Shown: positions 29,200 through 38,977, counted from the first letter of the stretch. The stretch is DNA of 64,000 nucleotides from Hydrogenothermus marinus (GCF_003688665.1 NZ_REFO01000011.1:124001-188000), one strand, 5' to 3'. Program-made: numbers and translations. The notes: generated by a model not told the origin, from the sequence alone.

Positions 29200-30129
29200 A
29201 TGCATTCTTTTATAATAACAGGTTTTTTAGGTACAGGAAAAACAACTTTACTTATAAATAATATAAAGAAATATTTTAAAGATAAAAAAATTGCAATAGT
29301 TGTTAATGAATTTGGAGAAGTTGGTGTTGATGGACAAATATTAAAAAATGTATATAGCGAAGTTTTAGAAATATCTGAAGGATGTATTTGTTGTAAACTA
29401 TCTGCAGAATTTGAAAAAGGAGTAAAAGAAATTATTAAAGATTATAATCCTGAAATAATTTTTATAGAAACCTCTGGAACTTCAGAACCTTTTCCAATAT
29501 TCCTTTCTTTACAAAATCTTGGGATATCAGTTGAAGGTATTATATGTGTCATAGATGCGAAGAATTTTAATTCTTATAAAGATGATGCTACTGCTAAATA
29601 TCAAATAGGTGGTTCAAATATAATTGTTTTAAATAAAATTGATTTAATAGAGGAAAAACAGTTAGAAAGTTTAGAAAAAGAAGTAAGAGAAATTAAAGAA
29701 AAATATAATATAAAAAATATTTTAACTGGAGAGGTTATATTCAAAAATTATGTTATATACAAAACAAAATTTGGAATATTACCCAAGGAAATATTTGATG
29801 GTATCTATAAAATAGATGAAATTATAAAAATAGCTCAAGAAAATGTAGAAACAGGAGTTTTTCAATCTAAACATAACTTTTCTCAAAGAATTATATATCT
29901 ACCTGATAATTTTTCATTTGAGGATATTGATAAAATATTGTCTAATATTCCAAATAATATTTTTAGGATAAAAGGCATTATTAAAGCCAAAGATGTACCA
30001 ACTCCTTTAGTAGTAAATTACTCATTTGGAGATCTTTCATTTTCAGAGCTTCCTTCTTACGAAGGAAAATCTTTCTTAGTTTTCATAGGCTCTAATTTAG
30101 AAACTAAAAATATAATTAAATTAAATTAG
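29200..30129 (+). CDS. CobW/COG0523-family GTPase (putative metal chaperone)
   Basis: A 309-aa G3E-class GTPase: P-loop GFLGTGKTT at residues 8-16, the metal-binding CxCC motif GCICCKL (C62, C64, C65), FIETSGTSEP, and NKIDLIE for guanine recognition. A CobW C-terminal-like domain follows. COG0523 proteins load metals, often zinc, into target enzymes. It converges with dabA, whose product needs a zinc site; the stops are only eight bases apart. It might therefore be a metallochaperone for DabA, but cobalt or other metals are possible. Confidence 0.85.
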   Translation: MHSFIITGFLGTGKTTLLINNIKKYFKDKKIAIVVNEFGEVGVDGQILKNVYSEVLEISEGCICCKLSAEFEKGVKEIIKDYNPEIIFIETSGTSEPFPIFLSLQNLGISVEGIICVIDAKNFNSYKDDATAKYQIGGSNIIVLNKIDLIEEKQLESLEKEVREIKEKYNIKNILTGEVIFKNYVIYKTKFGILPKEIFDGIYKIDEIIKIAQENVETGVFQSKHNFSQRIIYLPDNFSFEDIDKILSNIPNNIFRIKGIIKAKDVPTPLVVNYSFGDLSFSELPSYEGKSFLVFIGSNLETKNIIKLN

Positions 30130-30137
30130 ATTAAATT

Positions 30138-33005
30138 TTAAATTTCAATGAAGTTGTTGTTTTCATATTTATAAATCTTATTATCTTTTCTATCTAAAAC
30201 AACTAATCTAATCCATTCATTTTTTATTATATTATTTGATAAAGCTGATTTTTGCATAGCTTTATTTACAATATCAATAGGGGCTTCTACAAAAGTTATC
30301 AATCTCATAGGCTCATGATATGGTTGATCTGCAAGGTTAACAGTTTGTTCAGGAAGACCAATTTTTAAATCACTGAAATTGCCAAAAAATACCCCTACCT
30401 TACTAACTATATTATGATAAACCTTTGAACCTGCCCCAAAAACTTCATTATCTGTTGTTGAAAAATAATGCTCCATATTTATCCATTCTCCAACAACTAA
30501 TGGGCCTGAAAAAATAGTAGTTAAAACATTTCCATCTTCATCTTCTTCCCAGTTATAAGAATGTAAAAATACTCTATTAAACATAGGGAAATTTTTAGTA
30601 CTTTCTCTTTTACCTATAAAAAAAGCATTATTCTTAGATAATCCCCATTCTGGTCTTGGTTCAGACCAATCACAAGATTTTGTAAATATATCTTCTTCTG
30701 TTTCTGTATAAGGTAAAAATTTAGCTCTTTCAAGCCTAGATTTAGAAGATGCTTTCTCAAAATCAGATTTTATTTTTTCTATCAACTTTAATTCTTCATC
30801 ATTAAGAATATCTAAATTTTCTAAAAATAACTCATCTGTTGTTGTATTATGAAGACTTGGTATAAACTTTACATATTCAGGAATATTTATACCTTCTTCA
30901 AGTAGCTTTTTTCTTACCTCTTTATCATTAGCCATCATAGATATTACTCTTGCATTTGGAAGACCAACTCCACCACCACAAGCACCACAGTCTAAAGCTG
31001 ACTCAAAAGGATTATTATCTGATTTACTTCCATGACCAAACACAAATACAAATTTTGGGAAATTTTGTGTTAATCCTATAAGCTGAAGGAAATTTTTAAC
31101 ATAAGATACTTTCTCTTCTAAAGTAAATCCTACTTGTCTTAATTTTTCTTTTTGCATTTCATAATTTTCTTTGTTTACTGAATATTTGGTTTTTAAAATT
31201 TCAAGAAATTCTTCAGGGATATTTAAATCTAAACTTTTATTTAAAACTAGATATTCCCATACTTTTTCAACTTCAGATAAAGATATATTTCTTTTTAACT
31301 TTTCAGTTAAAAACTCTTCTATAATTTTAAAATGAACTTTTTTAGCGAATTCTTCTACTTCATCATCTGTTAATTTATTTATAGTATATATAGTTTTTGG
31401 TTTTTTAGGCCTAAATTTAGAGAAAAATTTATCTATCTGTCTTGGGAATAAAGTTTTTCCAAAAAGATTTATACCAAAAAGCCATCCTACTGCTTCTACC
31501 ATAATAAATGGAGTATAGGGATTGTTTTTTAAATCATTTAAAACATTCTTTAAGATTGAAAACATTTTCTTCCTAGATTTATATTCTTTATATCCTTCCT
31601 TTGGAAGTTCAAAAACAGTATTTTTAGGTTTTATTATAGCTGGACATAAAAACTGCTCATGACCTTTATCTAATTCAATGAATGTAATAGGTACACCGAA
31701 AAAGCCTGCTACTCCATATGTAAAATAAGGCCCTATTTTCTCTAAATATCTTCTTATAGATTCAGATCTCACATCTATACAAAAAACAGCTGCTGCCAAA
31801 TAGGATTTTTCCATAGAAGGATTAGAGCTTAAAAACTCACTTAAATATTTATTTATATAACTATCTTCTAAGGATTTTAGCCATAAATATCCTTCTTCAT
31901 TTTTTAGAGTATATATAAATTTCGCAAATTCTACAATATCTTTATCAAAGGTTGTTATTTCCTTTCTTATATTTAAAATTTGGTTTTTAATTATATTAAT
32001 TTCTTCTTCTTTATATATTCTCAAAATTTCTTTAAATTCACCTTCTGAAGAAGCTGTTTCCATTAAATCTACAAATTTAGGTAGTAATTTACCTTTATAT
32101 TTTAAAAGTTTTAGAATTACATAATTTTGATTTTGATTTATAAAATCATTTAGCTTTTTAAAATCTGATATTTTTTGTTTGCTAATATATTTATGCTCAT
32201 AAAAAAGCCTAATAGCTAGATAATCTTCTATAGAAGAAGGATATTCTTGTTGAAAGGGATAATCTTTGTCTTCAGATCTATATTTTATAAATCCTGCCCA
32301 ACCTACTTGTTTTAAAAGATGAATTAATAAATAATTTTCTTTATCTTCTACTTTTAGATTTTCTAATATTTTTTCAATAAAAACCTCTGCAGATTCTTGA
32401 ATGTTTTCTCCTTCATAATACTTAAAAACGTTAAACATTCCTAAATTTCTTTGATACATTGAAAGAGTAGTTTGTTCTTCATCTAAAAATCTAGTTATAA
32501 ATTCAATAATATCTTTTTCTATTTGATCTTTTAAGTTTGTATCAAATATAGCATCATATATTTCATATAAGGTAAGATTTTTTATAAGCTTTTTAATAGT
32601 TTCTTCTGTAGTTTTCTCAATTGTTTCTGTTTTTATAAACTCTATTAACTCTTCTTCATCAATACATTTGTTTATTTTTTCAAATTTATATTTATTCCAG
32701 TTTGGACTTATCTCTATTAAAAATTTCTTTGCTTCATAAAAATATTTTTTATAATTGTTTTCCTCTAATACTTTAAGAAGATTTTCTTCAAAAATATCTT
32801 CCCTAATAGTTCCATCCATATAAAGATTTACATAATACTCAGGTTCCATATATACATTTCCTTCAAAAATCTCTTTTGCTTTGTTTACCGCATTTTTAAA
32901 ATGTTGTTTTTCAAAGCCTTTTAATGGATTGTGATGAATAAAGTTTTTTATTGGCCAGTATTGAGGAATAATTGATTTTATATTATCAATATTTTTATTT
33001 ACCAT
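30138..33005 (-). CDS. dabA: DabA, probable inorganic carbon transporter subunit (DUF2309/UPF0753)
   Basis: The 955-aa protein belongs to the DUF2309 family, the cytoplasmic carbonic-anhydrase-like subunit of DAB pumps. The beta-CA-type zinc site is complete: C409 and D411 with R413 in FCIDVRSES, H658 in FGHGS, and C673 in LDCGACGG. The 15-residue step from His to Cys equals that in Halothiobacillus DabA2 (C351, D353, H524, C539). The N-terminus has WPIKNFIHHNPLKGFE, also typical. DabA is thought to hydrate CO2 one-way, driven through DabB, to store bicarbonate. The gene overlaps the upstream 8-TM gene by 11 bases and is last in the operon. Confidence 0.93.
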   Translation of the reverse strand: MVNKNIDNIKSIIPQYWPIKNFIHHNPLKGFEKQHFKNAVNKAKEIFEGNVYMEPEYYVNLYMDGTIREDIFEENLLKVLEENNYKKYFYEAKKFLIEISPNWNKYKFEKINKCIDEEELIEFIKTETIEKTTEETIKKLIKNLTLYEIYDAIFDTNLKDQIEKDIIEFITRFLDEEQTTLSMYQRNLGMFNVFKYYEGENIQESAEVFIEKILENLKVEDKENYLLIHLLKQVGWAGFIKYRSEDKDYPFQQEYPSSIEDYLAIRLFYEHKYISKQKISDFKKLNDFINQNQNYVILKLLKYKGKLLPKFVDLMETASSEGEFKEILRIYKEEEINIIKNQILNIRKEITTFDKDIVEFAKFIYTLKNEEGYLWLKSLEDSYINKYLSEFLSSNPSMEKSYLAAAVFCIDVRSESIRRYLEKIGPYFTYGVAGFFGVPITFIELDKGHEQFLCPAIIKPKNTVFELPKEGYKEYKSRKKMFSILKNVLNDLKNNPYTPFIMVEAVGWLFGINLFGKTLFPRQIDKFFSKFRPKKPKTIYTINKLTDDEVEEFAKKVHFKIIEEFLTEKLKRNISLSEVEKVWEYLVLNKSLDLNIPEEFLEILKTKYSVNKENYEMQKEKLRQVGFTLEEKVSYVKNFLQLIGLTQNFPKFVFVFGHGSKSDNNPFESALDCGACGGGVGLPNARVISMMANDKEVRKKLLEEGINIPEYVKFIPSLHNTTTDELFLENLDILNDEELKLIEKIKSDFEKASSKSRLERAKFLPYTETEEDIFTKSCDWSEPRPEWGLSKNNAFFIGKRESTKNFPMFNRVFLHSYNWEEDEDGNVLTTIFSGPLVVGEWINMEHYFSTTDNEVFGAGSKVYHNIVSKVGVFFGNFSDLKIGLPEQTVNLADQPYHEPMRLITFVEAPIDIVNKAMQKSALSNNIIKNEWIRLVVLDRKDNKIYKYENNNFIEI

Positions 33006-33735
33006 TTAAAACCTCCATAATACCATTAATACCCCATATTGTAAGAAGAAAAATAATAAAAAAATGAATAAATTTTTCGCTTCCAAGTATATCCTTATAG
33101 AATATATATTTATTTGGTTTTCCAAAAACAGTATTTGTTAATACCCTCATAGCAATTAAGAAATTAGTAAAAAACACAATGCCAAAAACTATATACCAGA
33201 TATAAGAGGTTTCATTTTTTATAAAACTATTAAACAAAAATACTGCATTAGGAAATGGTGGATATAAAGCTAAGGATATTAGATAAATTCTTAAGACAAA
33301 ACCAATGATAGGCGATTCAAGAGCAAGTCCAGAGATTCCACTAAAGTTTGCACTTCCATAGTTATTTTTATAATAATTTCCTACAAAATATAATCCTACA
33401 CAAGTTATAATTAAAGCCACTGCATAATAAATAGAATACTTAATATCAATTAATAAAAAAATACTACTATTTAAAAATAGAAAATAATAAGCAAGTTTAT
33501 ATAAGTTTGAAGTTTTTATAGCTTTATAAGCTGTTATCAATGTAGATATTAAAGAAATAATAATAAAAGCATAAGAAAAATCTACTTGATAAATAAATCT
33601 TAGTAGAAGACCTATAATCAATAAATTAGAAAATAAAGGAAAGTACTTAGATAAATTTTTATTTTTTTTGTCTAAAATTTCAAATAAAAAATAATAAGGT
33701 ATTCCTCCAACTAAAATAAAAATTAGTAATTCCAT
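32995..33735 (-). CDS. Polytopic membrane protein between dabB and dabA (antiporter-subunit-like)
   Basis: A 246-aa protein with about eight predicted TM helices and few charged residues. The stretch SGISGLALESPIIGFVLRI then ALYPPFPNAVFLFN recalls the loop-and-helix region of NuoL/NuoM/MrpD-type antiporter subunits (the LPPFNGF region). It is far shorter than those ~450-600 aa proteins and lacks their conserved Lys/Glu channel residues. It is 12 bases after dabB and overlaps dabA by 11, so all three are surely co-expressed. Described DAB pumps are two-gene dabA-dabB units, so this may be an extra membrane subunit. Function unknown. Confidence 0.7.
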   Translation of the reverse strand: MELLIFILVGGIPYYFLFEILDKKNKNLSKYFPLFSNLLIIGLLLRFIYQVDFSYAFIIISLISTLITAYKAIKTSNLYKLAYYFLFLNSSIFLLIDIKYSIYYAVALIITCVGLYFVGNYYKNNYGSANFSGISGLALESPIIGFVLRIYLISLALYPPFPNAVFLFNSFIKNETSYIWYIVFGIVFFTNFLIAMRVLTNTVFGKPNKYIFYKDILGSEKFIHFFIIFLLTIWGINGIMEVLNGK

Positions 33736-33747
33736 AAACCTACCTCA

Positions 33748-35355
33748 TTAAAAAAATTTGGAAATTTTAAACATTAATTTTGGAAAAAAACTTTCTTTTG
33801 CCAAGATTTTGTAAAATACCCATTTAATTTTATTAGGTTTTTCACCATTTATTTCTATATCAATAAAATGGGTTTTATATATAAATAGCCAACCAATTAT
33901 AAGAATAAGAAACATAATACCTAAGGATATAATAATAGATATATCTAAAGAAGCTACTTTATAAAATAATTTTGCGTTTTCACCATATAAAAACTTTTCA
34001 ATTAAACTACCAAAAAATTCATAAGTAAATACTACTAAAATAAATGAACTTAGAAGTCCAAATATAACCTTTAAAGAATCAGATTTGGAAACCTTAAAGA
34101 AAGATAGAAATAGTTGCGTACTTGTAAGCCATGCAAAAGCAAGTATTACTATTGCAGTATTAAAATAGAAAAATTCTTCACTGATAATAAATTTAATACC
34201 AGCAAATATTAGTACAGGTAATATAGTAAATAAAGCAATTATCCAATAAAAGTTCTTACTGTAATTAACCTTCTCTTCCCAAAAAACTTCATAGGATAAT
34301 TTTTTTGGTATATTTGGATCATGTCTTGCATAATGGATTAAACTCCCTGATTCTAAGAATAAAGATGCTTTAAAAATTCCATGAACCATAAGATGATAAA
34401 TTGCAAGACTAAAAGCTCCAATGCCTATTTCCATTATCATATATCCCATCTGACCAACAGTAGAATAACCAAGAGATCTTTTAATATCAGGAACTGCAAG
34501 CATTATAATAGATGCAAAAATAGCAGTAATAAGACCAAAAATAAAAGCTACATTTAAAACTGTTGGAGTTAGTAAAAGTAAAAATGCAAGCTTATTTAAT
34601 ACAATTCCTCCAACATTAACAACTCCTGCATGCATCAATGCAGATACAGGGGTTGGTGCAGAAGATGTATAAGGTAACCATATATGAAAAGGTATATTCG
34701 CTGATTTCATTAAGGCTGCAAAAAGAAATAAAAAACCTATTAAATATATTTCTATATTGCCTGAAAACCCATATTCATATCTTTCAAGCCATAATTTAGA
34801 AAGCTCTGTCAGATTAAATATGCCAAAAGTTTTATATACTAATATAATACCTATAATAAAAAGAAAATCTGCCAACTTATGAATTAGAATAGTCCAACTT
34901 CCAAACTTAACAGTTTGTTTATCTTCAATCTTAAATGATACAAGGAAGTACAGAGTTAAACTCATTATTTGCCAAGCAATAGCAAGTACAATTATATTAT
35001 TACTCATAATAAGAAGATATATAGCAGCAAATATAAAATTTAATAAGATATAAAATCTTTTAAACCCTTTTTCATCCCACATATATTTAGCACTATACTT
35101 TCTTATAACAATACCTAAAATAGCTACATATACAACTAAAATAGAAGCCATTTCATTAAATATTAATAAATCTCCAAATCCATAAATATTTTTTTGATTG
35201 GCTATTACATAATAGGCCCCTGCAATTCCTAAAACAGCAATTAAAAAGGAAAAATACATACTAATTTTTGAAATAGCTTCTTTGCTATTAATAAAGGAAA
35301 TTAAGAAAGCTATAATAACAGGTATAAATGGTATTAATAACACAGTTTTTTCCAT
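33748..35355 (-). CDS. dabB: DabB, proton-antiporter-like membrane subunit (NuoL/MrpA-like)
   Basis: A 535-aa membrane protein with ~14 helices and the Proton_antipo_M signature: K217 in MKSANIPFHIWLPYTSS, then APTPVSALMHAGVVN. In TM5 the motif AWQIMSLTLYFLV has Gln129 where NuoL and MrpA have the key Glu. DabB is the membrane partner that couples DabA to an ion gradient. Its place directly upstream of the DUF2309 gene marks it as DabB and not a Complex I subunit. GAGG precedes the ATG; tandem palindromes stand 57-113 bases upstream of it. Confidence 0.9.
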   Translation of the reverse strand: MEKTVLLIPFIPVIIAFLISFINSKEAISKISMYFSFLIAVLGIAGAYYVIANQKNIYGFGDLLIFNEMASILVVYVAILGIVIRKYSAKYMWDEKGFKRFYILLNFIFAAIYLLIMSNNIIVLAIAWQIMSLTLYFLVSFKIEDKQTVKFGSWTILIHKLADFLFIIGIILVYKTFGIFNLTELSKLWLERYEYGFSGNIEIYLIGFLFLFAALMKSANIPFHIWLPYTSSAPTPVSALMHAGVVNVGGIVLNKLAFLLLLTPTVLNVAFIFGLITAIFASIIMLAVPDIKRSLGYSTVGQMGYMIMEIGIGAFSLAIYHLMVHGIFKASLFLESGSLIHYARHDPNIPKKLSYEVFWEEKVNYSKNFYWIIALFTILPVLIFAGIKFIISEEFFYFNTAIVILAFAWLTSTQLFLSFFKVSKSDSLKVIFGLLSSFILVVFTYEFFGSLIEKFLYGENAKLFYKVASLDISIIISLGIMFLILIIGWLFIYKTHFIDIEINGEKPNKIKWVFYKILAKESFFPKLMFKISKFF

Positions 35356-35595: not shown

Positions 35596-36168
35596 ATGGC
35601 AAAGTTAGGACCAGCACACTACTCGCCTTATCCAGTAGCAGTGTATGAAGGAGTTTTAAATCCACCTCAAGGAAAAGCTCTTTTATTTGATAAGGTAGTA
35701 GATAAAGAAACAGCAATGAGAGAAGCTGCTAAAGCTATGTTAACAAGAGAAAACCCAACAATATTTGTTGGACCACTTGTATTATATGCATGGAATGAAG
35801 ATGCAGAAAAAAAAGCTAAATTAGTTAAAGAAATGGCAGAAGTTTTAAATGCAAGAATAATTCCTATGTATGATTATAGACCAAAATATCCAAAAGTTGA
35901 TCCTGAAGTAGAAATAAATCCTAACCATCCTAATCTAACTATTTGGCAAAATAATATAAAGGCTTGTATTTTTATAGGTGTTCATGATCATTATGCAAGT
36001 GTTGCTTTAAAAATAATAAGATGTGAAACAGACTGTTTTACTATAAGTTTAGATACTCCAAGTGGTCATGAAGATGCAATGATTACTATAAGAAGTACAG
36101 ATGTAGAAGATTTAGAAAAATTTATAGAAATAGCAAAAGAAGTAAAAAAAGAGCTAGGATTAGCTTAA
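35596..36168 (+). CDS. 2-oxoacid:ferredoxin oxidoreductase, epsilon/PorE-type accessory subunit
   Basis: The 190-aa protein is the first gene of a four-gene oxidoreductase operon. Sequence such as AAKAMLTRENPTIFVGPLVLYAW resembles the epsilon-subunit fold of CO dehydrogenase/acetyl-CoA synthase, which is also what the small extra subunit of Hydrogenobacter-type pyruvate synthase looks like. It has no ferredoxin cysteine motifs (only three scattered Cys). The role is probably structural or subunit-docking. AGGAGG is well placed before the ATG; the alpha subunit follows after 24 bases. Confidence 0.75.
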   Translation: MAKLGPAHYSPYPVAVYEGVLNPPQGKALLFDKVVDKETAMREAAKAMLTRENPTIFVGPLVLYAWNEDAEKKAKLVKEMAEVLNARIIPMYDYRPKYPKVDPEVEINPNHPNLTIWQNNIKACIFIGVHDHYASVALKIIRCETDCFTISLDTPSGHEDAMITIRSTDVEDLEKFIEIAKEVKKELGLA

Positions 36169-36192
36169 CATAAAACATAGGAGGTTTTTATT

Positions 36193-37383
36193 ATGGAAAC
36201 AATAAAAAATAAATCACAAACAAATAGAGCAGGTCAAAAGATAGTTTCTCCAGATTATCTTTTATTTGAAGCTCCAAGAACAAAACATTTTATGACTGGC
36301 TCAGAGGTAACAAAAGAAGCAGTAAAAAGAGCTTCAGTAGATGCATCTGTTTCATATCCTATTACACCACAGTCTGAAGCAGCTCACTTAATTGGGGAAC
36401 TTTGGGCAGAAGGATATGTAGGTGTATATTTCAGAGGTGAAAATGAGTTTGGTGTTATGTCAGAAGTTGTTGGATGTTCAATAGCAGGTGGAAGAACAAT
36501 TACAACAACTTCTGGACCAGGTACTCTTAGAGCTTTTGAAAACTTTCCAATGTGGGCAGGTACAAGAGCTCCTATGCAGCTTGTTTTAATGGCAAGAGGA
36601 GTAAACTCACCGCTTACTATACAGCCAGATAACCTGGAAGTAGGATTTTTATTAGATACAGGTTGCATGATCTGGTATGCAGAAAATGTTCAAGAATTAT
36701 TTGATATGATCCTTGCAGGATTTGTTGTTGCAGAACAACCTGATGTACATGTTCCTGTAATTACAGCTGTTGACGGATTTTTTGTTTCACATACAAGAGA
36801 AGCAGTATATCTTCCACCAGATGATATAGCATTACCACCGTATGATCCATATAAATCTCCTATGCCTGTAATAGACAATGAAATTCCTCCGGGAAGATTT
36901 TTAAGAGATCCATTTGTTATGAAATCTAATTACACATCTTATGCAACTCATGCAAGCTGGCAATGGGAAGTAAGATCGGCTATAGAGAGATCAAGACCTT
37001 ATGCTAAACATTACCTTAAAGGTCTTACTGAAGAGTTTGGTGATAAAGATGCTGAAATAGTATTTGTAGCAGCAGGTACAGCAGCAGCTCAATCAAAAGA
37101 AGCAGTTAGACTTTTAGAAGCAGAAGAAGGTATAAAAGCAAAAGTTGTTAAACTTAAAACAATAAGACCTTTCCCTTATAAAGAATTAGAAGAAGCAGTT
37201 AAAAATGCTAAATATATATTTGTTCCAGAATTTAACGTTGTTGGATGGCTTGAAAGAGAAGTTAGAAAAGCTCTTTATAAAAAATCTAATGCAGAAATTA
37301 TTGGTACACCAAGAGTTGCTGGTGGTATGACAATGCCTAAAGAAGCAATTGTAAAAGAAGTTTTAGAATTTATAAGAAAGTAA
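36193..37383 (+). CDS. porA: 2-oxoacid:ferredoxin oxidoreductase alpha subunit (pyruvate synthase type)
   Basis: The 396-aa alpha subunit carries the pyrimidine-binding half of the TPP site: TGSEVTKEAVKRA, SYPITPQSEAAHLIGELW, ENEFGVMSEVVGCSIAGGRT and TTSGPGTLRAFENFP. Together with beta and gamma it would fix CO2 onto acetyl-CoA (pyruvate synthase) or succinyl-CoA (2-oxoglutarate synthase) in the reductive TCA cycle; the sequence does not decide between them for me. AGGAGG lies before the ATG. Confidence 0.88.
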   Translation: METIKNKSQTNRAGQKIVSPDYLLFEAPRTKHFMTGSEVTKEAVKRASVDASVSYPITPQSEAAHLIGELWAEGYVGVYFRGENEFGVMSEVVGCSIAGGRTITTTSGPGTLRAFENFPMWAGTRAPMQLVLMARGVNSPLTIQPDNLEVGFLLDTGCMIWYAENVQELFDMILAGFVVAEQPDVHVPVITAVDGFFVSHTREAVYLPPDDIALPPYDPYKSPMPVIDNEIPPGRFLRDPFVMKSNYTSYATHASWQWEVRSAIERSRPYAKHYLKGLTEEFGDKDAEIVFVAAGTAAAQSKEAVRLLEAEEGIKAKVVKLKTIRPFPYKELEEAVKNAKYIFVPEFNVVGWLEREVRKALYKKSNAEIIGTPRVAGGMTMPKEAIVKEVLEFIRK

Positions 37384-37400
37384 ACAGGAGGTAATTTAAT

Positions 37401-38261
37401 ATGTCAATGAAAATATATCAATTAAATGAAGAATTTAGGAATATTGTTCCTCAAGAGATAGTAGCACTTCAAGAAAATGCTACTTGGGGAAATCCAAAAA
37501 GAGGAGTTATGGACCTTCCTGTATCAAAAGAGCTTCTTGAAGAACACTCTCTTTGTGCAGGTTGCCCTGAATCAGCAGCTTTAAGATATATATTAGCATC
37601 TTTACCAAATCCAGAGGATACAATTATTGTTAATTCAACAGGATGTACTTCTTTAATGTTCCCACATATTGCACTTCATACGGTTCACTCACTTTTCGGA
37701 AACCAAAACTCAGTAGCTACAGGAATTAAAAGAACTTTAGAATGGAGATTCCCTGATAAAACTAAAGATGTTGTTGTTCTTGCTGGTGATGGTGCAACAG
37801 TTGATATTGGTCTTGATTACACATTACAATCATTCTTCAGACAAGAAAAAATAACTACAATATGTTTTGATAACGAAGTTTATGCAAATACAGGTGGGCA
37901 AGAATCAGGATTAACACCTAAGGGACATGTATTTAAAATGGCTCCAAAAGGAAAGCAGTTTGAAAAGGTTCCTATGTGGCAATTAGCTATAGATTCAGGC
38001 TGTCATTATGTTGCAAGACTTACAGTTTCATCTCCAAAAAGAGTTGAGAAAGTAATAAAAGAAGCTATTTATGTAGCAAGAGAAGTTGGTCCTACGTATG
38101 TTCACCTTTATACTCCATGTATACTTGAAATTGGATTAAACTCTGATGATGGATTGGAAGAAATGAGAGGAAGAGATAAAGAAAGATTTAAATTCTTTGA
38201 ATATAAATCTCCTGAAGCTGAAGAAGTTATTAAGAAATACAAAGAGGAGGGCTTGTTATAA
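37401..38261 (+). CDS. porB: 2-oxoacid:ferredoxin oxidoreductase beta subunit
   Basis: The 286-aa beta subunit has the TPP-Mg site VVLAGDGATVDIGL...DNEVYANTGGQ and cysteines for a [4Fe-4S] cluster (CAGCPESAALR near residues 52-55, CTS..., and TPCILEIG). It transfers electrons from the TPP intermediate to ferredoxin, or takes them from it in the reductive direction. AGGAGG precedes the ATG; its stop overlaps the gamma-subunit start by one base. Confidence 0.9.
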   Translation: MSMKIYQLNEEFRNIVPQEIVALQENATWGNPKRGVMDLPVSKELLEEHSLCAGCPESAALRYILASLPNPEDTIIVNSTGCTSLMFPHIALHTVHSLFGNQNSVATGIKRTLEWRFPDKTKDVVVLAGDGATVDIGLDYTLQSFFRQEKITTICFDNEVYANTGGQESGLTPKGHVFKMAPKGKQFEKVPMWQLAIDSGCHYVARLTVSSPKRVEKVIKEAIYVAREVGPTYVHLYTPCILEIGLNSDDGLEEMRGRDKERFKFFEYKSPEAEEVIKKYKEEGLL

Positions 38262-38977
38262 TGCAAAGACAATTACTTAGTATAAGAATGCCTGCTCTTG
38301 GTGGGCAAGGTGCTGTTACTGCTGCTCATATTATAGCTACTGCTGCATCTTATGAAGGATATCATGCTATTTCAAATCCATTCTTTGGTGCAGAAAAAAG
38401 AATGGCTCCTTCTGAAAGTTATGCAAGATTAGGAATTATTCCTATCTATGATAGAGGAGAAGTTGTTTATCCTGATGTAATTATGGTATTCCACCCACAA
38501 GTTATTACTATGGGTAAATCTTACACTATGCCTTTCTATTCAGGTATTAAGAAAAACGGATTAATTCTTATAAATAGTGAAGAAAACTTATTAAATGCAG
38601 AAGATGCTCAATTCCTTGAAAGCTTAAATGTAAAAGTTTTAACTAAGGACTTTACAAAATTTGCAGTAGAGTTAGCAGGCACAGAACTTGCTACTAATAT
38701 GGCAATGCTTGGAGCTTTATTTGGAGCAATAGGTGTTGTAAGTAAAGAATCTATTGAACAAGGTATTAAAGATAGATTCTTGAAAAAATATGTTGCATCT
38801 GGTGGTACTGCTACTCTTGATTCTGCTATTGAAAGAAAGTTCAAAAAGAAACTTGAATTAATTGAGAAAAACCTTGCAACTGCATCTGCAGCTTATGATC
38901 TTGCAAGAGAATGGGCTATAAACAATGGATTAGAACCTTTCTTACCACCACCTCCACAAGAGGAAAAAGTAGCTTAA
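38261..38977 (+). CDS. porG: 2-oxoacid:ferredoxin oxidoreductase gamma subunit
   Basis: A 238-aa protein with the gamma-domain signature MPALGGQGAVTAAHIIATAA and the following NPFFGAEKRMAPSESYARLG, which contacts CoA. It is coupled to beta by a TAATG overlap with GGAGGG upstream. It closes the operon ahead of a strong terminator. No delta (2x[4Fe-4S] ferredoxin-type) subunit gene is present on either side. Confidence 0.9.
   Translation: MQRQLLSIRMPALGGQGAVTAAHIIATAASYEGYHAISNPFFGAEKRMAPSESYARLGIIPIYDRGEVVYPDVIMVFHPQVITMGKSYTMPFYSGIKKNGLILINSEENLLNAEDAQFLESLNVKVLTKDFTKFAVELAGTELATNMAMLGALFGAIGVVSKESIEQGIKDRFLKKYVASGGTATLDSAIERKFKKKLELIEKNLATASAAYDLAREWAINNGLEPFLPPPPQEEKVA

What the first reader, a model, noticed from the sequence alone, without database searches (positions are those of the whole stretch)
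30138..35355. DAB inorganic-carbon pump operon with a third, intervening membrane gene
Seen: dabB (33748-35355), an 8-TM 246-aa gene (32995-33735) and dabA (30138-33005) run together with a 12-base gap and an 11-base overlap. DabA keeps the complete beta-CA-like zinc site (C409, D411, R413, H658, C673). Known: the described DAB pumps are two-gene DabA/DabB systems. Inferred: the middle protein resembles a fragment of an antiporter subunit and may be an extra coupling or assembly subunit, giving a three-part pump. I could not search for homologues, so its novelty is unproven.
Basis: partly seen in the sequence, partly recalled or inferred. Interest (0 to 1): 0.8.

Follow-up and report, generated by a model that had tools for sequence, protein, structure and literature searches.

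The report
Three-gene DAB1-type carbon-dioxide pump operon
This hot-spring bacterium carries the three-gene version of a known bacterial pump that turns CO2 into bicarbonate inside the cell; the extra middle gene is not new, but it proves to be a shrunken respiratory-complex subunit that goes with every pump examined on this branch of the family.

Summary
In detail: dabB, a 246-aa membrane gene and dabA run together, with a 12-base gap and an 11-base overlap, and DabA keeps the zinc site. The claim of a new three-part pump is not supported: Halothiobacillus DAB1 is already described as three-subunit (PMC13144422), and its interstitial gene was in the plasmid that rescued CA-free E. coli (PMC7714395). 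What I add: (1) all 80 closest DabA loci in GTDB genomes have the middle protein, 74 as a gene and 6 fused to DabB. Among 52 Aquificota genomes with dabA, every one whose dabA 5' side could be read has it, about half fused to DabB. (2) Five DAB2-type loci lack it, and the DabA tree separates the two kinds cleanly. (3) The middle protein is the C-terminal half of a NuoM/MrpD-like antiporter with its proton-path residues lost; Nitrospira keeps a longer, NuoM-like version. (4) In Hydrogenobaculum, middle gene plus dabA were gained and lost as a block, apart from dabB. (5) Only DabAs of this type carry about 75 extra residues after the membrane finger. Most likely it is a proton-inactive bridging/coupling subunit between DabB and DabA. 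Its position and necessity are untested.

The parts
33748..35355 (-). dabB (535 aa): NuoL-like proton-channel subunit
   Evidence: PF00361 1.5e-42; best NCBIfam matches are NuoL models; residues equivalent to DabB2 S256, H260, K310, S316, H339, H343, K347, D185 and K235 all present
32995..33735 (-). middle gene (246 aa, ~8 TM): DAB1-type third subunit, a reduced C-terminal half of a NuoM/MrpD-like antiporter subunit
   Evidence: hhalign to H. neapolitanus-type middle proteins 97% and to the fused DabB C-terminus 97.5%; AF2 pLDDT 95.9; Foldseek hits are ND4/NuoM/MrpD/NdhD/HycC-type antiporter subunits
30138..33005 (-). dabA (955 aa): cytoplasmic beta-CA-like zinc subunit with membrane finger
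   Evidence: PF10070 1.1e-217; 9rd0_A (DabA2) 4.4e-81
31779..31781 (-). DabA C409 (zinc ligand), followed by D411 and R413
   Evidence: CIDVR motif; invariant in 92 DabAs
31494..31496 (-). DabA E504, equivalent of the finger glutamate E444 of DabA2
   Evidence: alignment; invariant in 92 of 92
31176..31448 (-). approximate position of the DAB1-type insert in DabA (between finger E504 and H658; 147-170 aa against 76-89 aa in DAB2 type)
31032..31034 (-). DabA H658 (zinc ligand)
30987..30989 (-). DabA C673 (zinc ligand)
29200..30129 (+). COG0523/CobW GTPase with CxCC motif, convergent with dabA; candidate zinc metallochaperone (inference)
   Evidence: PF02492 7e-47; recurs beside dabA in relatives
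35596..38977 (+). pyruvate:ferredoxin oxidoreductase-type operon (CO2-fixing enzyme of the reductive TCA cycle), divergent from dabB
   Evidence: PF02552, PF01855/PF17147, PF02775, PF01558; recurs beside dab operons

Best explanation
The locus encodes a DAB1-type DIC-accumulating complex: a proton-motive-force-driven, one-way carbonic anhydrase with three subunits. Protons pass inward through DabB, which is NuoL-like, and past the DabA finger glutamate (E504). That movement switches on the buried zinc site of DabA, and CO2 that has diffused in is hydrated to trapped bicarbonate. The middle protein is the C-terminal half of a NuoM/MrpD-like antiporter subunit that has lost its proton-path residues. 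It most likely sits against DabB where complex I has the neighbouring antiporter subunit, and contacts DabA, perhaps through the DAB1-specific insert after the finger. It would act as a proton-inactive bridging, coupling or assembly subunit. Shown here: family membership, conserved catalytic and proton-path residues, descent and fold of the middle protein, its co-occurrence with this DabA type, and its natural fusion to DabB. Inferred: docking site, contact with DabA, and coupling role.
For: Same gene order and detectable homology in H. neapolitanus-type DAB1 loci (L103, L097). 80 of 80 closest loci have it; 18 members assigned by position were confirmed with an HMM not trained on them, and the only other ORFs it hit were the 6 fused DabBs. 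In Aquificota about half of the readable dabA loci have it fused to DabB (753-792 aa where complete), which argues for physical association with DabB. On the DabA tree, mid-bearing and mid-less types are split by one branch (support 100) and the fusions form one group. The middle profile aligns to residues ~270-480 of NuoM/NuoN-type proteins and to NuoL, but not to control membrane proteins. Nitrospira has a 439-aa version matching NuoM 211-477 at 3e-19 and the middle profile at 98.5%. Foldseek top hits are ND4/NuoM/MrpD/NdhD. The TM12 Glu/Lys position is Leu/Met/Phe/Val/Ile in 72 of 76. Middle gene plus dabA were duplicated, and in G053 lost, as a unit with dabB left alone. The DabA insert occurs in 88 of 88 mid-bearing and 0 of 4 mid-less DabAs.
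Against: No expression, co-purification or mutant data exist for this protein. The literature available here does not say whether the middle gene is needed in DAB1; DAB2 works without it (PMC13144422). The AF2 model of the natural fusion is only moderate (pLDDT 77.9, pTM 0.72), so it does not fix the docking position. The insert and the middle gene both follow one branch of the tree, so their association is a single evolutionary event. Only 4 DAB2-type DabAs (few lineages), plus the solved DabA2, were compared. Each antiporter comparison is weak on its own.
Confidence: 0.75

Rival explanations
1. The middle protein is an active second proton (or Na+) channel half that adds a second ion per CO2, so the three-part pump works against a steeper bicarbonate gradient.
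For: It descends from a proton-pumping NuoM/MrpD-like subunit. Some polar or charged residues are conserved (basic K/R at window position 71 in most members, acidic D215 in 67 of 76).
Against: The TM12 exit Glu/Lys is replaced by hydrophobic residues in 72 of 76. The half carrying the TM5 Glu and TM7 Lys is missing in most members. A half bundle alone cannot form a full channel.
Confidence: 0.08
2. The middle protein is an assembly or stability factor needed only for membrane insertion of DabB/DabA, not part of the finished pump.
For: DAB2 is active without such a protein (PMC13144422) but fell apart during purification until its subunits were fused, so a stabiliser would be useful. It sits between the two genes that need assembling.
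Against: Permanent fusion to DabB in about half of the Aquificota loci means it stays in the complex there.
Confidence: 0.12
3. A decaying gene fragment carried along with no function.
For: It is a truncated, diverged antiporter homologue with no Pfam match.
Against: Retained in every comparable locus across Aquificota, Campylobacterota, Pseudomonadota and Nitrospirota, with intact frames, conserved motifs and tight coupling.
Confidence: 0.02

Closest known systems
DAB1 (dabB1 / hneap_0908 / dabA1) of Halothiobacillus neapolitanus
   Same: Three genes in the same order; homologous DabA, DabB and middle protein (L103, named H. neapolitanus); three-gene set functional in E. coli (PMC7714395).
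   Different: DabA identity about 33%. H. neapolitanus DAB1 lies in a carboxysome-linked operon with rubisco-related genes (PMC7714395), whereas here the neighbours are a CobW GTPase and pyruvate:ferredoxin oxidoreductase genes of the reductive TCA cycle.
DAB2 (DabA2-DabB2, PDB 9rd0)
   Same: Zinc site, finger glutamate and DabB proton-path residues.
   Different: No middle protein in the five DAB2-type loci checked. DabA lacks the ~75-aa insert. Residue at NuoL E144: Ile in DAB2, mostly Gln in the Aquificota/Campylobacterota group and mostly His/Phe in Pseudomonadota.
MpsABC of Staphylococcus aureus
   Same: DabA/DabB homologues with a third gene in the operon.
   Different: mpsC lies downstream, is confined to staphylococci and is dispensable (PMC6689103). 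Its sequence was not compared here.
NuoM / MrpD / NdhD3 antiporter subunits
   Same: Fold and sequence of their C-terminal half.
   Different: Half length; exit Glu/Lys lost.

Membership tests
DAB / DAC inorganic-carbon pump | DabA (PF10070) with Cys2His zinc site and Asp-Arg dyad | tested here: met
   725 bits; C409, D411, R413, H658, C673
DAB / DAC inorganic-carbon pump | DabB of PF00361 with NuoL-type proton path | tested here: met
DAB / DAC inorganic-carbon pump | Finger glutamate in DabA (E444 of DabA2) | tested here: met
   E504
DAB / DAC inorganic-carbon pump | Energy-coupled DIC accumulation / rescue of CA-free E. coli | not testable with these tools
   needs expression
DAB1-type three-subunit DAC | Small membrane protein encoded between dabB and dabA, homologous to that of H. 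neapolitanus | tested here: met
   position; hhalign 97.3% between the Aquificota/Campylobacterota set and the set holding L103; HMM hit on L103 weak alone, 2e-3
DAB1-type three-subunit DAC | DabA falls in the DAB1-type clade, not DAB2 | tested here: met
   tree, support 100
DAB1-type three-subunit DAC | Middle protein is part of the purified complex | not testable with these tools
   no biochemical data found
DAB2-type two-subunit DAC | dabB directly followed by dabA, no middle protein | tested here: not met
NuoM/MrpD antiporter subunit (PF00361) | Full two-half bundle with TM5 Glu, TM7 Lys, TM12 Glu/Lys | tested here: not met
   No Pfam match; C-terminal half only; TM12 residue lost

The most novel reading that the evidence does not exclude
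The third protein is an obligatory, defining subunit of DAB1-type pumps: a relic of a second complex-I antiporter subunit that docks on DabB and contacts the DAB1-specific insert of DabA. DAB1-type pumps would then be a simplified complex-I membrane-arm tip (NuoL plus half a NuoM) driving a carbonic anhydrase, parallel to cyanobacterial NDH-1MS (NdhF3/NdhD3/CupA), and coupled differently from DAB2.
Probability: 0.35. Interest if true: 0.6.

Novelty: new member of a known kind. Interest (0 to 1): 0.42.

Why it matters
The only solved DAC structure, DAB2, lacks this subunit. Much of the family, including pumps of reductive-TCA autotrophs at hot springs and vents and the DAB1 used in synthetic CO2-concentrating E. 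coli, carries it as a gene or fused to DabB. So conclusions drawn from DAB2 may not transfer, and the 'two-gene' Aquificaceae systems are three-domain systems in disguise. The natural fusions and the Nitrospira form give ready material for structures and deletion tests.

Tried and rejected
A mixed alignment of fusions, separate DabBs and separate middle proteins for one AlphaFold job: MAFFT kept placing the middle proteins on the DabB N-terminus, so the fusion was modelled with only 6 rows covering its C-terminus and the docking position is not resolved. Direct PDB sequence search with the middle proteins: no hits. The idea that DAB1-type DabB regains the NuoL E144 ion-pair switch where a neighbour subunit is present: rejected, the position is Gln/His/Phe/Ser/Ile and never Glu. 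The idea that the mid-dabA pairs of Hydrogenobaculum lack a DabB altogether: rejected, dabB is elsewhere in both genomes. Possible Aquificota exceptions without an adjacent middle gene (G084, G076): both genomes have it beside or fused to a dabB on another contig. DabB-middle fusion in G010, suspected from a 721-aa frame: two separate genes. Desmarais 2019 (PMC10184468) and 10.1128/JB.00377-21 are not held, so their data on the middle gene could not be checked.

Full report
OBSERVATION. DabA matches PF10070 end to end and DabB matches PF00361. The middle protein has no Pfam match; NCBIfam gives weak hits to the C-terminal half of MrpD-type proteins (best E = 1e-4). The zinc site C409/D411/R413/H658/C673 is intact. 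E504 corresponds to E444 of the H. neapolitanus DabA2 finger, which is required for activity (PMC13144422). Six DabB proton-path residues whose mutation impaired DAB2 (S256, H260, K310, H339, H343, K347) are conserved in the window DabB.

PRIOR KNOWLEDGE. The premise that described DAB pumps are two-gene is wrong. PMC13144422 calls H. [quoted passage not shown] coli. Neither text as held says what the gene does or whether it is needed. The third gene of S. aureus mpsABC is a different case: downstream, confined to staphylococci and dispensable (PMC6689103).

DISTRIBUTION. A scan of GTDB genomes with a DabA alignment returned the 80 closest loci: Aquificota, Campylobacterota, Pseudomonadota and one Nitrospira, including a genome named H. 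neapolitanus (L103) and Guyparkeria (L097, whose DabA zinc cysteine is residue 462, as published for DabA1). Of these, 74 have a separate middle ORF and 6 have it fused to the DabB C-terminus. One separate copy is cut by a contig end (L048) and one ORF is short (L061, 161 aa). For 18 loci the first HMM missed the ORF; an HMM built without them then found all 18 (E 1e-79 to 1e-7), and apart from middle ORFs the only ORFs it hit in those loci were the 6 fused DabBs. Across the phylum Aquificota (136 genomes, 52 with dabA), every locus whose dabA 5' side could be read has the protein, separate or fused, except two genomes that have it with dabB on another contig. By my count about 25 loci are separate and 27 fused, a few cut by contig ends. 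The phylum's two-gene operons are thus three-domain systems. Five DAB2-type loci (L070, L098, L090, L137, L138) have dabB followed directly by dabA. A maximum-likelihood DabA tree separates mid-bearing from mid-less types by one branch, puts the fusions in one group, and places Nitrospira first on the mid-bearing side. The outgroup branch is long, so the position of the Nitrospira row is not certain.

HOMOLOGY. Profile comparisons join the Aquificota/Campylobacterota middle proteins with the Pseudomonadota ones (97.3%), and both with the fused DabB C-termini (97.5% and 99.3%). The joint profile aligns to the C-terminal half of NuoL, NuoM and NuoN homologues, most often residues ~270-480, and not to control membrane proteins or to DabB itself. 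AlphaFold2 gives a confident model (pLDDT 95.9, pTM 0.92), and the PDB hits are ND4/NuoM/MrpD/NdhD/HycC-type antiporter subunits. The Nitrospira third protein is 439 aa; its residues 164-423 match NuoM 211-477 at 3e-19 and the middle profile over nearly its whole length at 98.5%. It is a less reduced relative. At the TM12 Glu/Lys position, 72 of 76 middle proteins have Leu, Met, Phe, Val or Ile. The family therefore looks like a shortened, proton-inactive antiporter subunit.

PARTNERS. Fusion to DabB argues for contact with DabB. Hydrogenobaculum argues for a link to DabA: G057 has dabB-mid-dabA plus a second mid-dabA pair without dabB, and in G053 mid and dabA are gone from the dabB locus while the other mid-dabA pair stays. 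In addition, the mid-bearing DabAs have 147-170 residues between the finger glutamate and the zinc histidine, against 76-89 in the four DAB2-type ones. This co-variation rests on one branch of the tree, so it is a lead, not proof.

MECHANISM. Shown: catalytic, finger and proton-path residues are conserved, so the vectorial CO2-hydration mechanism proposed for DAB2 should apply. Inferred: the middle protein occupies the NuoM-facing flank of DabB and bridges to DabA, stabilising or tuning coupling. The moderate model of a natural fusion (L071) resembles NuoL but does not settle the interface.

CONTEXT. The dab operon is divergent from a pyruvate:ferredoxin oxidoreductase-type operon and convergent with a CobW GTPase. 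2-oxoacid:ferredoxin oxidoreductase genes and often CobW recur beside dab operons in Aquificota and Campylobacterota. Co-location of DIC genes with reductive-TCA genes is already reported (PMC10880623). No beta-carbonic anhydrase was found in the window's genome.

VERDICT. The identity, universality, fusion and co-inheritance of the third subunit are useful additions and make its role directly testable.

Noticed in passing
29200-30129 (window); L042, L043, L044, L045, L058, L062, L071, L135: A CobW/COG0523 GTPase with a CxCC motif lies next to dab operons in many Aquificota and some Campylobacterota; a candidate zinc metallochaperone for DabA.
   Followed up: partly
L135:4076-10392 (G027); L063: In Sulfurihydrogenibium-like genomes an SbtA-type bicarbonate transporter gene lies between the dab middle gene and dabA; in L135 it is followed by a P-II-type protein gene, merging two DIC uptake systems in one operon next to por genes.
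   Followed up: partly
L133, L134, L160, L161 (Hydrogenobaculum-type genomes G053, G057): A mid-dabA pair without dabB sits far from the dabB locus; in G053 the dabB locus has lost its own mid-dabA, leaving dabB alone.
   Followed up: yes
L114:1671-2990 (Nitrospira): The third protein of the dab operon is 439 aa and NuoM-like over its C-terminal part, apparently a less reduced form.
   Followed up: yes
35596-36168 (window): The first gene of the pyruvate:ferredoxin oxidoreductase operon matches the CO dehydrogenase/acetyl-CoA synthase epsilon family (PF02552).
   Followed up: no
L020-L024; L081, L097, L103: A P-II-like gene (117 aa in Aquificaceae) directly follows or overlaps dabA in the fused-type operons; a similar small ORF follows dabA in Halothiobacillus/Guyparkeria DAB1 loci (only the L022 copy was checked against Pfam).
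   Followed up: partly
L094:2108-9060 (Nitrosomonas eutropha Nm57): Two dabA genes of equal length (1046 aa) in tandem behind one dabB.
   Followed up: no
window genome G000: No beta-carbonic anhydrase (PF00484) found, so how pumped bicarbonate is turned back to CO2 for the ferredoxin oxidoreductases is unclear; alpha, gamma and other CA classes were not searched.
   Followed up: partly
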